Assembly (NCBI GenBank): GCA_023666705.1
Contig: JAMPBO010000020.1
Coordinates: 1-51,199 of the forward strand
Direction of reading: 5' to 3'
DNA length: 51,199 nucleotides
Source of the DNA: Bacteroides sp.
Lineage (GTDB): Bacteria > Bacillota > Clostridia > Lachnospirales > Lachnospiraceae
The notes beneath the pieces are model-generated. The model made no database searches, had not been told where the DNA came from, and saw nothing but the letters and a program-made list of their open reading frames with translations. Made by a program: the position numbers and the translations under genes. Shown piece by piece: positions 26,591 through 31,387 of the stretch (position 1 is its first letter; every line of letters begins with the position of its first letter).

Positions 26591-26631
26591 TGAAAATAAA
26601 AAGCACCTTAAGAGGTAGCTCAAATGTAGAT

Positions 26632-26667
26632 AAAATCCAAGGCGTAAGCCTTGGATTTTCTTTTATA
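26632..26667 (+). terminator. Rho-independent terminator after the HD gene
   Basis: A 12-base stem (26632-26643 with 26648-26659) with a GTAA loop, followed by TTTTC and TTTTAT. Confidence 0.85.
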
Positions 26668-26708
26668 GGAAGAGATGAAAAGCGAGAGATTTCTTTCATG
26701 TCATTTCG

Positions 26709-26737
26709 TTGACAAGAAATTACTATGATGTTAAACT
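26709..26737 (+). promoter_or_regulatory. Consensus-like promoter with a long leader to the surface-toxin gene
   Basis: TTGACA (26709-26714), a 17-base spacer and TAAACT (26732-26737). The next gene starts at 27014, so the leader would be about 270 bases. It has a GAGGGGAGG ribosome-like site near 26814 but no convincing ORF after it, and no riboswitch fold I recognise. Confidence 0.6.
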
Positions 26738-27013
26738 GTGGTTAATAGATATGCTATAGTTATACATTTCAAAATAATTCAAAATGCAGCTATACGGTGG
26801 AAAATTAATATAGAGGGGAGGATATTAAAGGACGCACTGTCTTTGACACTGATGGTATGCTCATATATGATAAGTTTGTCCAACTAATATTCCACTAGAG
26901 ATGCAAAATAATAAATGCAGGAAAACAATTCAAGAGGCTGTTTTGAGGATATTCAGAAAAAGACTGAATATGAAAAGAAAAAAGGAAGATGAAAAACAAG
27001 GAGGATAAAGCCT

Positions 27014-30000
27014 ATGTTGGGGAGAAAAAATATTAAATGCCGCTTTACGTTATTGCTGAGCTTTGTGATGACGTTGTCATTATTTAGTAACAGTCCAATA
27101 AAAGCAAATGATACCGTTGATTTATATCCATACACAATATTTGCAGCTTCCAATGAGGAGGGAGCAATTTTTGTTACGGCAGACAATTTTTGTGTGAATG
27201 GGAATGTGGCATCAAACGGTACGATTGTATCAACAGGGAACGTAAATATAAATGGCACAAAAACAGAAAATGCCAGCGAAGACATGATTTACATATTTAA
27301 TAAAATTGATACAACATATTTTTCAGATGATGATGTGGAGACACATGCTGAAAATTATTTTTTGGAGGATTTGAATATCAATATTAACCATCCGCTTGAA
27401 GTTGAAGGGGAGGCTGCACTTATTGGTAATATCAACATCAATACGGCATTTAAGGCGTCGGAAGATATATCATTGCAAGGAGAGGTAAAAAACACCAATG
27501 ATTCAATTATCGCTTCTGAGAATGGTAATATCGTGATTGACAGCCAAAATGTAAATCTGAATGGTTTGGTATATGCACCGTTTGGGGAAGTTAATATAAC
27601 CGCTCAAAATCTGACGCTTAACAGTGTAATAATTATTGCTGATAAGGTCACGATTAACTGTCCGAGTGTTAATGCAAATTATAACAATGATATGGCGGCT
27701 TTTATAGGAACAAATTCAGAACAAGTAGAAATTTCGGATGACGAAAAGTCGGATATGACAGATGAGAATGAAAATGGATTGCCTGATTTCTATGAAGATA
27801 TTTCAAATTGGTATTGTTTTGAAGATACCGATAAGGATTTGATTCCGGACGTGATTGAAGCATGGCTAAACTCAAATCCTAATATGCAGGATACGGATGG
27901 TGATGGTCTAGATGACTTTTTCGAAATGACAATCAGCTTAACTGATTTAACGTTGGCGGATACGGACAATAATGGGATATCCGACGGAGATGAGGATTTA
28001 GATGCAGATTCCCTTACCAATATAGAGGAATATCAACTTGGCACACACCCGTTATTAGCGGATTCAGACGGTGATAAATTAAATGACTATGAAGAAATAT
28101 ATGTTTCCTTTACTAATCCGAATGAAAAGGATACCGATGAGGATGGTGCTAATGATAAATGGGAAATTGATAATGGATTTAATCCCAGCGTATACAATGC
28201 CTCATTTGCTATTTCTGCTCAGGCAGAAGGAAAAAATATAACAGCGTCTGTCTCAATAAAGGCAGCAGGCAGTCAGGTGGAAAGCTTATCTGTTGAGCCT
28301 GCTGATGATCTTTTGTTGCTTGATGATAGCGTTCCGGGATACATAGGAAGTCCTTTTCGCTTTGAAATAGATGGCACCTTTGAACAAGCTGCTATTTCGT
28401 TTACTTTTGACGCACAGTATTTAAATGATATGACATTTATACCGACAATTTATTATTACAATGAGGAAATGCAGCTTTTAGAAGAACTGCCGACTACGGT
28501 TGATGGAAATGTTGCAACTGCTGTAACAACACACTTTTCTACATATATATTACTGGATAAAGCAACCTATGAAGCTGCATGGGAAACAATGCAGGAATCT
28601 GATAATAACGCCAACGTAGAAAAAGTTAATATTGCGTTTGTGGTAGATGTATCAGGAAGCATGGTTAAAAGAAATCTGCCTGTTGCTAAAATGGTAATTG
28701 GCAATTTTATTGGCAGGATAAAGAAAAGCGGTGTTAATACAAATGTAGCGTTAGTGGAGTTTGAAAGTACGTCACATACCGTGTGTGATTTAACAGATGA
28801 GTATGACACATTTTTACTGAAATTAAGCGGTTTAAGTGGCGGAGGAGGGACAAATATATGTAATGGAATAAACGAAGGTTTGACGGTACTTGATGTTGAT
28901 ATGAATAAACAAAATGTACAGAATATTATTATCCTATTAACAGACGGATATGATAATTATGGAGTGAAAAAGGAGGGATATCTGCAAGCCGTTGCACGTG
29001 CAAAAAACCAACGGACAAAAATTTATACAGTAGGGGTTGGTTACGTTGATGAATCGTTGTTAATGTCTGTTGCAGATGCAACAGGCGGGGCATATTTCTT
29101 TGCAGACTATGAAGGAAAGCTTTATGAAATTTATGAGGATATTCATTCCGAGATTTTTGATTATACGACGGATTCCAACCATGATGGCATTAGTGATTAC
29201 TTTACCAAATGTCTTTGTGATGGAACATTAAGAGTTGGAACACAATGTAATATATTTGATGGTATTTCATATGAGGCGTTTAATGCCAACGATGACTATG
29301 ATGGGGACGGCATTATAAATGGGGATGAATTCGAGATAAGATATGCAGAAAAGAGGAATCGGATTTACGTTTACTTACATTCTAATCCTGTTGAAGCGGA
29401 TAGTGACTTTGATGGAGTGGACGATTCTATAGATGATAACCCCTTTGATTCAGGAACAGGATTTTTAATCTATGAGTCTTCAAAAACAGATAAAAAATTA
29501 AAGGGTTTAAGCTTTGCAGACAGACCAGAAGATTACAAATATGCAGATAAAAGCATTGATGAAATAAGAGCCATGAAATTTATTAGTTGGATGGATTTTC
29601 TGGGACAGGAGAAAGATGTTTATGCAAATAATTTTAAATCACTTCTAAGCTTGTGCTCTACTGGAGATATGTCGGATGTTGCATATGATATGGCAAACCA
29701 TTTTTTGGACGGAACCGGAACGGATTATTCCAATAGTGTGTTAAGCAAAACAATTTCAGAAAATGAAAAAACGGATGCATACGTCAATGCTGTAAGCAAG
29801 ATTGTTGATGAACATATCAAAACGAATCAGGGGGATATATCGGGCCTTGCCTATATTGACGGAACGGAGTTTGAACGCAAGCAGGGAGTAATGGTTAAGA
29901 ATATGAGGTACCAAAAAATTGCAGAACCACACTATACGGAACCTTTCAGTGGTTTGGGAATCTGTGTAGATAGTCTGTATGGAAATCGCTTTGAAATTAC

Positions 30001-30241
30001 ATCGTACAAATTTGATGGGAAAAATTATGAATATACGTTACGGTTTACATTTTACGATGTTTTTGGCTTGGATAGTGGTGATATCAAAGATTCAGGGGTA
30101 TCAAAGCATTTTAAGTTTGGCATGATTGGGGGATTTCGTAGCTGGTATATTCTTCAACATTGTAACCTATACAATGGCGACTATAAGCCTTATATTTCTT
30201 ACATGACATTTGAAAGGACATTTCAGGGGCAGATTGAATGA
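27014..30241 (+). CDS. Large secreted VWA protein with calcium-type repeats and C-terminal DUF3289-like domain; candidate polymorphic toxin
   Basis: A 1075-residue exported protein. Residues 1-31 are a signal peptide (ending IKAND). About 32-235 is a beta-rich domain with recurring NGN/NIN turns (VNINGT, VNLNGLVYAPFG). About 243-392 holds thrombospondin-type-3-like acidic repeats (DTDGDGLDD, DSDGDKLND, DTDEDGAND). About 537-715 is a von Willebrand A domain with a full metal site: D545, S547, S549, T613 and D644. About 717-815 is a second acidic-repeat cluster (DYDGDGI, DSDFDGVDD). About 825-1073 resembles DUF3289 (GDMSDVAYDMANHFLDGTGT, FTFYDVFGLD, GFRSWYILQH), a domain I associate with effector or toxin C-termini. 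There is no LPXTG anchor. AAGGAGG precedes the ATG. The stop overlaps the next start as ATGA, tying it to a putative immunity lipoprotein. The architecture is seen; the toxin role is inferred. Confidence 0.85.
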   Translation: MLGRKNIKCRFTLLLSFVMTLSLFSNSPIKANDTVDLYPYTIFAASNEEGAIFVTADNFCVNGNVASNGTIVSTGNVNINGTKTENASEDMIYIFNKIDTTYFSDDDVETHAENYFLEDLNININHPLEVEGEAALIGNININTAFKASEDISLQGEVKNTNDSIIASENGNIVIDSQNVNLNGLVYAPFGEVNITAQNLTLNSVIIIADKVTINCPSVNANYNNDMAAFIGTNSEQVEISDDEKSDMTDENENGLPDFYEDISNWYCFEDTDKDLIPDVIEAWLNSNPNMQDTDGDGLDDFFEMTISLTDLTLADTDNNGISDGDEDLDADSLTNIEEYQLGTHPLLADSDGDKLNDYEEIYVSFTNPNEKDTDEDGANDKWEIDNGFNPSVYNASFAISAQAEGKNITASVSIKAAGSQVESLSVEPADDLLLLDDSVPGYIGSPFRFEIDGTFEQAAISFTFDAQYLNDMTFIPTIYYYNEEMQLLEELPTTVDGNVATAVTTHFSTYILLDKATYEAAWETMQESDNNANVEKVNIAFVVDVSGSMVKRNLPVAKMVIGNFIGRIKKSGVNTNVALVEFESTSHTVCDLTDEYDTFLLKLSGLSGGGGTNICNGINEGLTVLDVDMNKQNVQNIIILLTDGYDNYGVKKEGYLQAVARAKNQRTKIYTVGVGYVDESLLMSVADATGGAYFFADYEGKLYEIYEDIHSEIFDYTTDSNHDGISDYFTKCLCDGTLRVGTQCNIFDGISYEAFNANDDYDGDGIINGDEFEIRYAEKRNRIYVYLHSNPVEADSDFDGVDDSIDDNPFDSGTGFLIYESSKTDKKLKGLSFADRPEDYKYADKSIDEIRAMKFISWMDFLGQEKDVYANNFKSLLSLCSTGDMSDVAYDMANHFLDGTGTDYSNSVLSKTISENEKTDAYVNAVSKIVDEHIKTNQGDISGLAYIDGTEFERKQGVMVKNMRYQKIAEPHYTEPFSGLGICVDSLYGNRFEITSYKFDGKNYEYTLRFTFYDVFGLDSGDIKDSGVSKHFKFGMIGGFRSWYILQHCNLYNGDYKPYISYMTFERTFQGQIE

Positions 30242-30747
30242 AGAAAATTTTAAAAAAAATAGTGTTAATTTATTTAGCTTATGTATGTATTATGGAAGTT
30301 TGGGGCTGTCAAGGTCCGGCACCAAAGCATATACGTGAGATGGTGCTGGATAATAAGCATGATTACGATACAATAGCCCAATTATATTACAGCTATTATC
30401 AGTGTGATGCGGGGGCAGGGATATTATCATATAGTGGGGGAGATTGTCGATTTATATTTTGTTATACGGATCCTTATGCCCGTGAAATTTGGCTTAACGA
30501 TGAGCAATATTCAAGTGTGCAAAAGGTTGACGCTAGTTATCGTTTGGGTAAAAAGTATTGGGATAGAGTATATGTATATGATACGTTTGTGTCATTTTGT
30601 ACTGAAAATGGGCGAGAATCCCTCGTATACTCTGCCAAGGGTAAAAGACCATCTTATATTAATACACCGGATGATGACGATGGAATTATCGCGGTCAATA
30701 AAATAACGGAGCACTGGTATTATATGAGCGGTTGGCCTTCGCCATAA
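30238..30747 (+). CDS. Putative lipoprotein, candidate immunity protein of the VWA-DUF3289 protein
   Basis: A 169-residue exported protein with a basic start, a hydrophobic core (about 8-20) and a lipobox-like VWGC, so C24 would be the lipidated N-terminus. The mature domain is small and aromatic-rich (LYYSYYQCDAGAGILSYSGG, then YTDPYAREIW). No family recognised. It starts in an ATGA overlap with the large gene, which means the two proteins are produced together. A single small exported partner directly behind a toxin-like C-terminus is the usual place for an immunity protein guarding the outer face of the membrane. A second, broken copy follows at once. Confidence 0.8.
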   Translation: MKKILKKIVLIYLAYVCIMEVWGCQGPAPKHIREMVLDNKHDYDTIAQLYYSYYQCDAGAGILSYSGGDCRFIFCYTDPYAREIWLNDEQYSSVQKVDASYRLGKKYWDRVYVYDTFVSFCTENGRESLVYSAKGKRPSYINTPDDDDGIIAVNKITEHWYYMSGWPSP

Positions 30748-31294
30748 AAGCATTTACGGAGGAATATTGATGAAAATACCTTTAGAAACGTTAAGTTTAA
30801 AAAAATGTTTAAAATTAGCAACATTAATCTTCTTAGCTTATGTATGTATTATGGAAGTTTAGGGCTGTCAAGGTCCGGCACCAAAGCATATACGTGAGAT
30901 GGTGCTGGATAATAAGCATGATTACGATACAATAGCCCAATTATATTACAGCTATTATCAGTGTGATGCGGGGGCAGGGATATTATCATATAGTGGGGGA
31001 GATTGTCGATTTATATTTTGTTATACGGATCCTTATGCCCGTGAAATTTGGCTTAACGATGAGCAATATTCAAGTGTGCAAAAGGTTGACGCTAGTTATC
31101 GTTTGGGTAAAAAGTATTGGGATAGAGTATATGTATATGATACGTTTGTGTCATTTTGTACTGAAAATGGGCGAGAATCCCTCGTATACTCTGCCAAGGG
31201 TAAAAGACCATCTTATATTAATACACCAGATGATGACAATGGAATTATCGCGGTCAACAAAATAACGGAGCACTGGTATTATATGAGCGATTGG
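30274..31294 (+). repeat. Tandem duplication of the lipoprotein gene body (about 462 bases, offset 559)
   Basis: Bases 30274-30735 recur at 30833-31294 with about five substitutions by eye, near 99% identity. The signal-peptide codons before the block and the bases after it differ between copies. Recent duplication, or gene conversion of the body only, explains this. Confidence 0.95.
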
Positions 31295-31297
31295 TAG
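30770..31297 (+). pseudogene. Second lipoprotein (immunity-like) copy, inactivated by a stop codon
   Basis: The copy has its own good ribosome site (GGAGGA) and ATG at 30770 and a different, longer signal-peptide start (MKIPLETLSLKKC). The codon for the Trp just before the lipobox Gly-Cys is TAG instead of TGG (30860-30862). Downstream the frame is fully open and almost identical to copy 1 up to 31297. Translation would give a 30-residue hydrophobic peptide, so no lipoprotein is made unless the stop is suppressed or translation restarts at ATG 30899, which would lack the export signal. The single-base, very recent lesion could also be a strain polymorphism or a sequencing error. Confidence 0.8.
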
Positions 31298-31322
31298 TGA
31301 AGAGTAAATACTTCAATGTGAA

Positions 31323-31370
31323 GGAGGGTGTTTCCCAAAGTCATAGATGATGGGAACACCCTCCGTTTTG
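31323..31370 (+). terminator. Rho-independent terminator closing the toxin/immunity cluster
   Basis: A long stem GGAGGGTGTTTCCCA (31323-31337) pairs with TGGGAACACCCTCC (31351-31364), one T unpaired, followed by GTTTTGC. It separates the cluster from convergent murG. Confidence 0.85.
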
Positions 31371-31387
31371 CATATTTAATCTTAAGC

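What the first reader, a model, noticed from the sequence alone, without database searches (positions are those of the whole stretch)
27014..31297. Candidate surface polymorphic toxin (VWA + calcium repeats + DUF3289-like tip) with an exported immunity lipoprotein
Seen: a signal-peptide protein with TSP3-like repeats, a complete VWA metal site and a distinct C-terminal domain, overlapping (ATGA) a small lipobox-bearing gene that is duplicated. Known: polymorphic toxins carry a variable toxic tip followed by a small immunity gene, often in several copies. DUF3289 is, from memory, a domain of unknown function typical of proteobacterial proteins. Inference: VWA and repeats form a surface delivery stalk, DUF3289 is the effector, and the immunity protein works outside the membrane because it is exported. 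A Gram-positive VWA-DUF3289 toxin with lipoprotein immunity would be a new combination.
Basis: partly seen in the sequence, partly recalled or inferred. Interest (0 to 1): 0.8.

Follow-up and report, generated by a model that had tools for sequence, protein, structure and literature searches.

The report
Secreted gut-bacterium toxin with swappable tip
A gut-type Gram-positive bacterium carries a secreted protein whose end looks like a toxin that destroys a cell-wall building block, next to a membrane-anchored gene that probably protects the owner; relatives keep the same body but carry different ends, which points to a little-described weapon system.

Summary
The 1075-aa protein (27014-30241) has a signal-like N-terminus, TSP3-like repeats, VWA and a DUF3289 tip (Pfam 4.3e-16). 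The next gene overlaps it by ATGA and encodes 169 aa with a hydrophobic N-terminus; its lipobox is atypical. The second copy is broken by a stop. Stalk homologues change their C-terminus near residue 815: DUF3289, DUF4474, Ntox44, an EC869-like nuclease, lipases. In Coprococcus (L072) the toxin is followed by five immunity homologues, four preceded by displaced tip ends, typical of polymorphic toxins. The nearest relative has no insert here. DUF3289 is a published antibacterial domain likened to colicin M; our tip model matches the DUF3289 effector BtpeA. Best reading: a Sec-secreted polymorphic toxin attacking lipid II outside the membrane, with immunity anchored there. Against: only one of five recurring tip clusters had recognisably related next genes, and direct likeness to colicin M is weak. 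Toxin kind and tip are known; the VWA/TSP3 chassis was not found in the papers searched. Toxicity, target and surface display are inferred.

The parts
27014..30241 (+). toxin gene, 1075 aa: signal, head, TSP3-like repeats, beta-type domain, VWA, repeats, DUF3289 tip
27014..27106 (+). signal peptide (about residues 1-31)
   Evidence: by eye; no predictor run
27107..27748 (+). N-terminal head (about residues 32-245), no significant Pfam match; some relatives carry CBM_2 heads instead
27815..28198 (+). TSP3-like acidic repeats before the VWA
28196..28618 (+). conserved domain before the VWA, HFS motif at residues 507-509 (28532-28540)
   Evidence: no identity found
28628..29131 (+). VWA domain (539-706), MIDAS residues present
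29159..29443 (+). second TSP3-like block; tips change just after it
29456..30238 (+). tip (815-1075); DUF3289 core 29630-30208
30238..30747 (+). candidate immunity gene, 169 aa, N-terminal membrane anchor or atypical lipobox, overlaps the toxin stop
30770..31297 (+). second immunity copy, interrupted by an in-frame stop; residual ORF 30899-31297 lacks export signal
31323..31369 (+). likely intrinsic terminator closing the operon
   Evidence: 31315-31375 folds at -30.9 kcal/mol, z -7.2
26612..31382 (.). stretch without a match at the same site in the nearest relative G431

Best explanation
This is a polymorphic toxin-immunity pair. The toxin leaves the cell through Sec (inferred from its signal). 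Its head, calcium-type repeats and VWA domain make an extracellular body that probably holds it on the surface or on neighbours (inferred). Its C-terminal DUF3289 tip is a colicin M-type enzyme that most likely cleaves lipid II on the outer face of a neighbour's membrane, which in Gram-positives needs no outer-membrane crossing (inferred from published DUF3289 work and fold). Because the toxin also emerges on the owner's outer face, immunity must sit there: the ATGA-overlapping gene encodes a membrane-anchored protein whose domain is exposed outside and blocks the tip (topology predicted, binding inferred). The module is accessory, and tips are exchanged near residue 815 by recombination, leaving displaced tip ends and spare immunity genes in a close relative (sequence shown, process inferred).
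For: DUF3289 significant; tip model mean pLDDT 92.9; Foldseek top hit BtpeA T6SS effector 9jdi, E 7.9e-14, ranks 2-5 syringacin M and colicin M at weak E-values 0.19-1.4; tip profile matches DUF3289 PDB chains at 1.1e-39, the next chains being unrelated at E 0.016 or worse. Published: DUF3289 toxic in the E. coli periplasm, cells round up, DUF943 protects (PMC11148199); DUF3289 T6SS effector with an immunity protein that has a signal peptide and three TM helices (PMC12135965). Different tips on one stalk, including Ntox44. Tip/immunity array in L072. Hydrophobic N-terminus in 33 of 35 next genes against 33 of 122 control ORFs. No insert in G431 and G399.
Against: No activity measured. Likeness to colicin M itself is weak here (Foldseek E above 0.1, no Colicin_M among Pfam matches), and the published motif DXYDX5HR is not present as such. 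The His of the common YDHFGLD motif is Val here (other rows have Ile, Val or Tyr). The immunity model matches no solved fold. Of five recurring tip clusters only DUF4474 had related next genes at blastp 1e-3; some next genes are evidently ordinary genes (L047, L067, L068, L070 by eye). The control ORFs are mechanical ORFs, and many of the 35 are related Bacillaceae. No cell-wall anchor was recognised.
Confidence: 0.7

Rival explanations
1. The pair is a toxin and immunity protein, but the tip acts on another envelope target (another lipid-linked phosphate or the membrane), not lipid II.
For: Weak likeness to colicin M proper and no ColM motif; PMC11148199 itself asks for further work on mechanism.
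Against: Published rounding of cells and structural likeness point to the cell wall; syringacin M and colicin M are the next Foldseek hits after BtpeA.
Confidence: 0.2
2. The stalk is a general carrier of secreted enzymes for feeding or wall remodelling; the DUF3289 protein is not a weapon and the small gene is a chaperone or anchor.
For: Six of 29 C-terminal regions form a lipase cluster (three scanned by Pfam, all three Lipase_3) without a shared next gene; some heads are CBM_2.
Against: Ntox44 and a just-over-cut-off EC869-like nuclease on the same stalk; alternating displaced tips and immunity genes in L072; DUF4474-DUF5104 linkage.
Confidence: 0.12
3. The locus is decaying and no longer makes an active toxin.
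For: Second immunity copy is interrupted; the common motif His is replaced.
Against: The toxin frame and first immunity gene are open; the same His position also varies in L072, L073, L075, L094, L095 and L104.
Confidence: 0.08

Closest known systems
DUF3289 T6SS effectors with membrane or exported immunity (T6EC1/T6IC1; A. jandaei pair; BtpeA/BtpiA of B. fragilis)
   Same: Same tip family (Pfam, PDB profile and fold); immunity gene next door
   Different: Those are reported as T6SS effectors of Gram-negatives; here a signal-like N-terminus and VWA/TSP3 body; our immunity protein has no Pfam match
TelC/TipC, lipid II phosphatase of Streptococcus intermedius (PMC5555719, PMC6193138)
   Same: Predicted same target and side of membrane; N-terminally anchored immunity facing outward; tipC paralogues in the operons (section heading seen)
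   Different: TelC is an LXG toxin exported by T7SS; no Pfam link to our tip; no TipC entry among the 50 of 525 fold hits shown for our immunity model
ColM bacteriocins (PMC5821083)
   Same: Reported fold relative; polymorphic; varied membrane immunity partners
   Different: ColM motif not present; only weak direct fold match; different body
CDI/Rhs/WapA-type polymorphic toxins (recalled)
   Same: Constant body, variable tip, displaced tip ends and spare immunity genes
   Different: Body is head-TSP3-HFS domain-VWA-TSP3, not a filamentous or YD-repeat protein

Membership tests
Polymorphic toxin system | constant N-terminal body with variable C-terminal toxin tips | tested here: met
   29 C-terminal regions in 15 clusters; several kinds within the genus
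Polymorphic toxin system | immunity gene directly downstream whose kind follows the tip | tested here: inconclusive
   DUF4474-cluster to DUF5104 5 of 5 and window/L072 pair 43%; but 4 of 5 recurring clusters show no related next genes at blastp 1e-3
Polymorphic toxin system | orphan tip and immunity cassettes | tested here: met
   L072 array; lone tip ORFs in G197 and G106
Polymorphic toxin system | tip is toxic and immunity neutralises it | not testable with these tools
   published only for other DUF3289 members
DUF3289 (PF11692) | score above the curated cut-off | tested here: met
   59.7 against 25 bits
TIGR03034 (YPO3983 family) | score above the curated cut-off | tested here: not met
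   61.9 against 156.45 bits
Colicin M enzymes | colicin M fold | tested here: inconclusive
   syringacin M and colicin M rank 2-5 but at E 0.19-1.4
Colicin M enzymes | DXYDX5HR motif | tested here: not met
   alignment A3 read by eye shows YD[H or other]FGLD and WxxLQH instead; motif from PMC5821083
LXG/T7SS toxins | LXG N-terminal domain | tested here: not met
   no LXG among Pfam matches up to E 10
Lipoprotein | consensus lipobox before Cys | tested here: inconclusive
   atypical site, failed consensus pattern

The most novel reading that the evidence does not exclude
A separate class of Sec-secreted polymorphic toxins, built on a TSP3-HFS domain-VWA-TSP3 chassis, is spread through Lachnospiraceae, Paenibacillus and other bacteria. 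It delivers lipid II-attacking, other envelope-attacking and nuclease tips without T6SS or T7SS, and the conserved HFS-containing domain before the VWA cleaves itself to release the VWA-tip half.
Probability: 0.5. Interest if true: 0.78.

Novelty: new variant of a known kind. Interest (0 to 1): 0.62.

Why it matters
As far as I recall, few contact or proximity weapons are described for gut Firmicutes apart from T7SS LXG toxins. A Sec-secreted chassis with swappable tips, if active, would add a route by which commensals compete. It gives DUF4474 and DUF5104, for which the searched library held no paper, a testable toxin-immunity role, and it places a colicin M-like enzyme in Gram-positives, where lipid II is exposed outside the membrane. 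How a nuclease-tipped version would reach a target cytoplasm would be an open question.

Tried and rejected
Rejected: T7SS/LXG (no such domain). TIGR03034 membership (below cut-off). ZU5-type autoproteolytic identity of the HFS domain: the profile found no such PDB chain, and none of 10 members matched such a Pfam family. The link of HFS to self-cleavage is recalled only; the A6 rows were picked by an HFS pattern, so the fair view is, where HFS is usual in VWA-bearing stalks but is HFG, QLS or lost in Bacillus, Streptomyces and some other proteins. Orphan immunity in G401 beside murG: the contig ends there, so a toxin upstream may be unassembled. murG as a functional neighbour: the HD-murG gap is empty or holds other genes in relatives, so the neighbourhood is probably chance. 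An Rhs body for L075 was seen by eye only; Pfam found only DUF3289. Immunity fold and profile: no match. PADLOC: no match. One further literature search listed a single review, not opened.

The G399 gap is corrected to 47 bp.

Rows dropped: of the 36 regions fetched, 28 proteins went into the clustering with the window; contig-truncated, fragmentary or poorly covered ones were left out, and cut points were set by eye. Of 53 loci, 43 were analysed (10 left out as apparent repeats, judged from the listing); 41 gave an ORF. A3 used 33 of these plus the window. A5 used 13 next genes plus the window, chosen for similar length and C-terminal pattern.

Full report
What is there. The window is one contig of a 2.86 Mb genome. 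The reported ORF is real: 27014-30241, 1075 aa. Pfam gives VWA (6.1e-24, residues 539-706) and DUF3289 (4.3e-16, 59.7 bits against a cut-off of 25, residues 873-1065). The VWA metal-site residues are D545/S547/S549, T613 and D644; eight DxDx[DN] motifs lie outside the VWA. The next gene begins inside the toxin's stop codon and encodes 169 aa with a hydrophobic N-terminus. The duplication is real (95% over 300 nt), but the second copy contains an in-frame stop just before its Cys codon, and what remains open (30899-31297) lacks an export signal. Identity between the copies begins abruptly after a divergent start. A hairpin with a T run follows.

The body is shared and the tip changes. A search of 397 genomes of the same family gave matches in 60 at E <= 0.001, some through the VWA domain alone. 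I fetched 36 regions and compared 28 C-terminal regions plus the window: they fall into 15 clusters at blastp 1e-4. Pfam names some of them: DUF4474 (L042, L048, L051, L062; L052 by clustering), Lipase_3 (L043, L044, L047, L056 over cut-off), and an EC869-type CDI nuclease in L055, only just over its cut-off (27.5 against 27 bits). DUF3289 occurs in only 2 of these 397 genomes, the window's own and G197. Within the genus (37 genomes, own included) the toxin query matched 9, three of them weakly. The better ones carry DUF3289 (own and G411), Ntox44 (G402, 1e-12) and, by eye, two further tip kinds (G413 with G403, and G404 with G403), one of these with a Lnb_N match just below its cut-off.

Does the next gene follow the tip? 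Mixed. The five DUF4474-cluster tips are each followed by a DUF5104 gene over its Pfam cut-off. The L055 nuclease tip is followed by a protein without a hydrophobic N-terminus, and downstream lie a further tip end and a second similar gene. In the other four recurring clusters (lipase, DUF3289, and two pairs) the next genes were not related at blastp 1e-3, and in a few loci the next ORF is evidently an ordinary gene. For DUF3289 a weaker pattern holds: one scan of genome contigs, limited to two peptide patterns, found 53 loci in Clostridia, Bacillaceae, Paenibacillus, Actinobacteria and two proteobacteria. Of the 41 with an ORF that I analysed, 35 have a same-strand ORF of at least 100 aa close downstream, and 33 of those 35 have a strongly hydrophobic N-terminus, against 33 of 122 control ORFs in the same loci; many of the 35 are related Bacillaceae. 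The bodies differ: of 16 DUF3289 proteins scanned, 7 have VWA (L072, L090, L095, L097, L099, L101, L108); others have TSP3 without VWA or RicinB/CBM96/Big_2 domains.

The strongest single piece of evidence is L072, a Coprococcus contig. Its toxin is 61% identical to ours overall (stalk 60%, tip 63%, immunity 43%). It is followed by five immunity homologues, and each of the last four is preceded by a displaced end of a DUF3289 tip; three of these tip ends are ORFs that overlap the following immunity gene, and the fourth is seen only as a tblastn match. Alternating tip ends and immunity genes are what tip exchange in polymorphic toxins leaves behind.

The module is accessory. In the relative with the closest MurG (G431, 97%) and in G399 (88%) the HD-domain and murG matches are 158 and 47 bp apart. 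G430 (95%), G400, G416 and G417 have other genes there (1.3-4.9 kb), three of them sharing a zinc-ribbon membrane-protein kind by eye. G401 has a double-domain immunity homologue beside murG, at a contig end. The stretch of the window without a counterpart in G431 is about 26612-31382. Its genes have G+C 0.36-0.38 against 0.40 for the window.

How it probably works. AlphaFold gives a confident tip model (mean pLDDT 92.9, 34-sequence alignment). Its only Foldseek match at E <= 0.001 is BtpeA, a T6SS effector of Bacteroides fragilis (E 7.9e-14); the next four hits are syringacin M and colicin M, at E-values that alone prove nothing (0.19-1.4). The tip profile matches the DUF3289 chains in the PDB at 1.1e-39. 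Passages read in PMC11148199 report that a DUF3289 protein is toxic in the E. coli periplasm, resembles colicin M, makes cells round and is neutralised by DUF943. Passages in PMC12135965 report a DUF3289 T6SS effector and an immunity protein with a signal peptide and three TM helices. Passages in the RIX and PAAR papers (PMC10435454, PMC8651086) also list DUF3289 among toxins. In Gram-positives lipid II is reachable from outside: TelC, a T7SS toxin, cleaves it, and its immunity protein TipC is anchored with its active part outside (passages of PMC5555719; abstract and one section of PMC6193138). Our immunity model (mean pLDDT 81) has an N-terminal helix and a helix-and-sheet domain but no PDB fold match, so a TipC relationship is not shown.

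Shown by sequence: architecture, differing tips on one body, exported next genes at DUF3289 tips, the L072 array, the accessory insert. Inferred: Sec export, surface display, toxicity, lipid II as target, immunity binding. The conserved HFS motif before the VWA could mark self-cleavage, but this is only a recalled resemblance.

Novelty. The tip family and the polymorphic toxin kind are known. In the held open-access library one paper holds polymorphic toxin with von Willebrand and Lachnospiraceae; the passages read in it (PMC12419801) do not describe this chassis. Searches for TSP3 or VWA domain with polymorphic toxin listed one and five papers, which by title and abstract concern other systems; none was opened. 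There were no papers for DUF4474 or DUF5104. The library lacks most subscription papers and bioRxiv, so this is not proof of novelty.

Noticed in passing
L072:6762-10365: Array of five immunity homologues with four displaced DUF3289 tip ends behind the toxin gene.
   Followed up: yes
window 28532-28540 and relatives: HFS motif in a domain just before the VWA, usual in VWA-bearing stalks, changed or lost in Bacillus and Streptomyces relatives.
   Followed up: partly
window 26591-31387 and L145-L151: The gap between an HD-domain gene and murG varies within the genus: empty in two relatives, other genes in four, immunity homologue in one.
   Followed up: partly
L042, L048, L051, L052, L062: DUF4474-cluster tips are followed by DUF5104 genes in 5 of 5 cases: a candidate unnamed toxin-immunity pair.
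   Followed up: partly
L055:5451-8048: Same stalk with an EC869-like nuclease tip, an immunity-like gene without signal, and a second tip-end/immunity pair; how such a tip would reach a target cytoplasm is unclear.
   Followed up: no
L077-L092, L100: In several Bacillaceae a DUF3289 protein (TSP3 without VWA in the three scanned) has a lipoprotein-like next gene.
   Followed up: no
window 30238-31297: The two immunity copies are nearly identical except for sharply divergent first codons, as after gene conversion.
   Followed up: no
L075: DUF3289 tip on what looks like an Rhs/YD-repeat body (by eye only; not confirmed by Pfam).
   Followed up: partly
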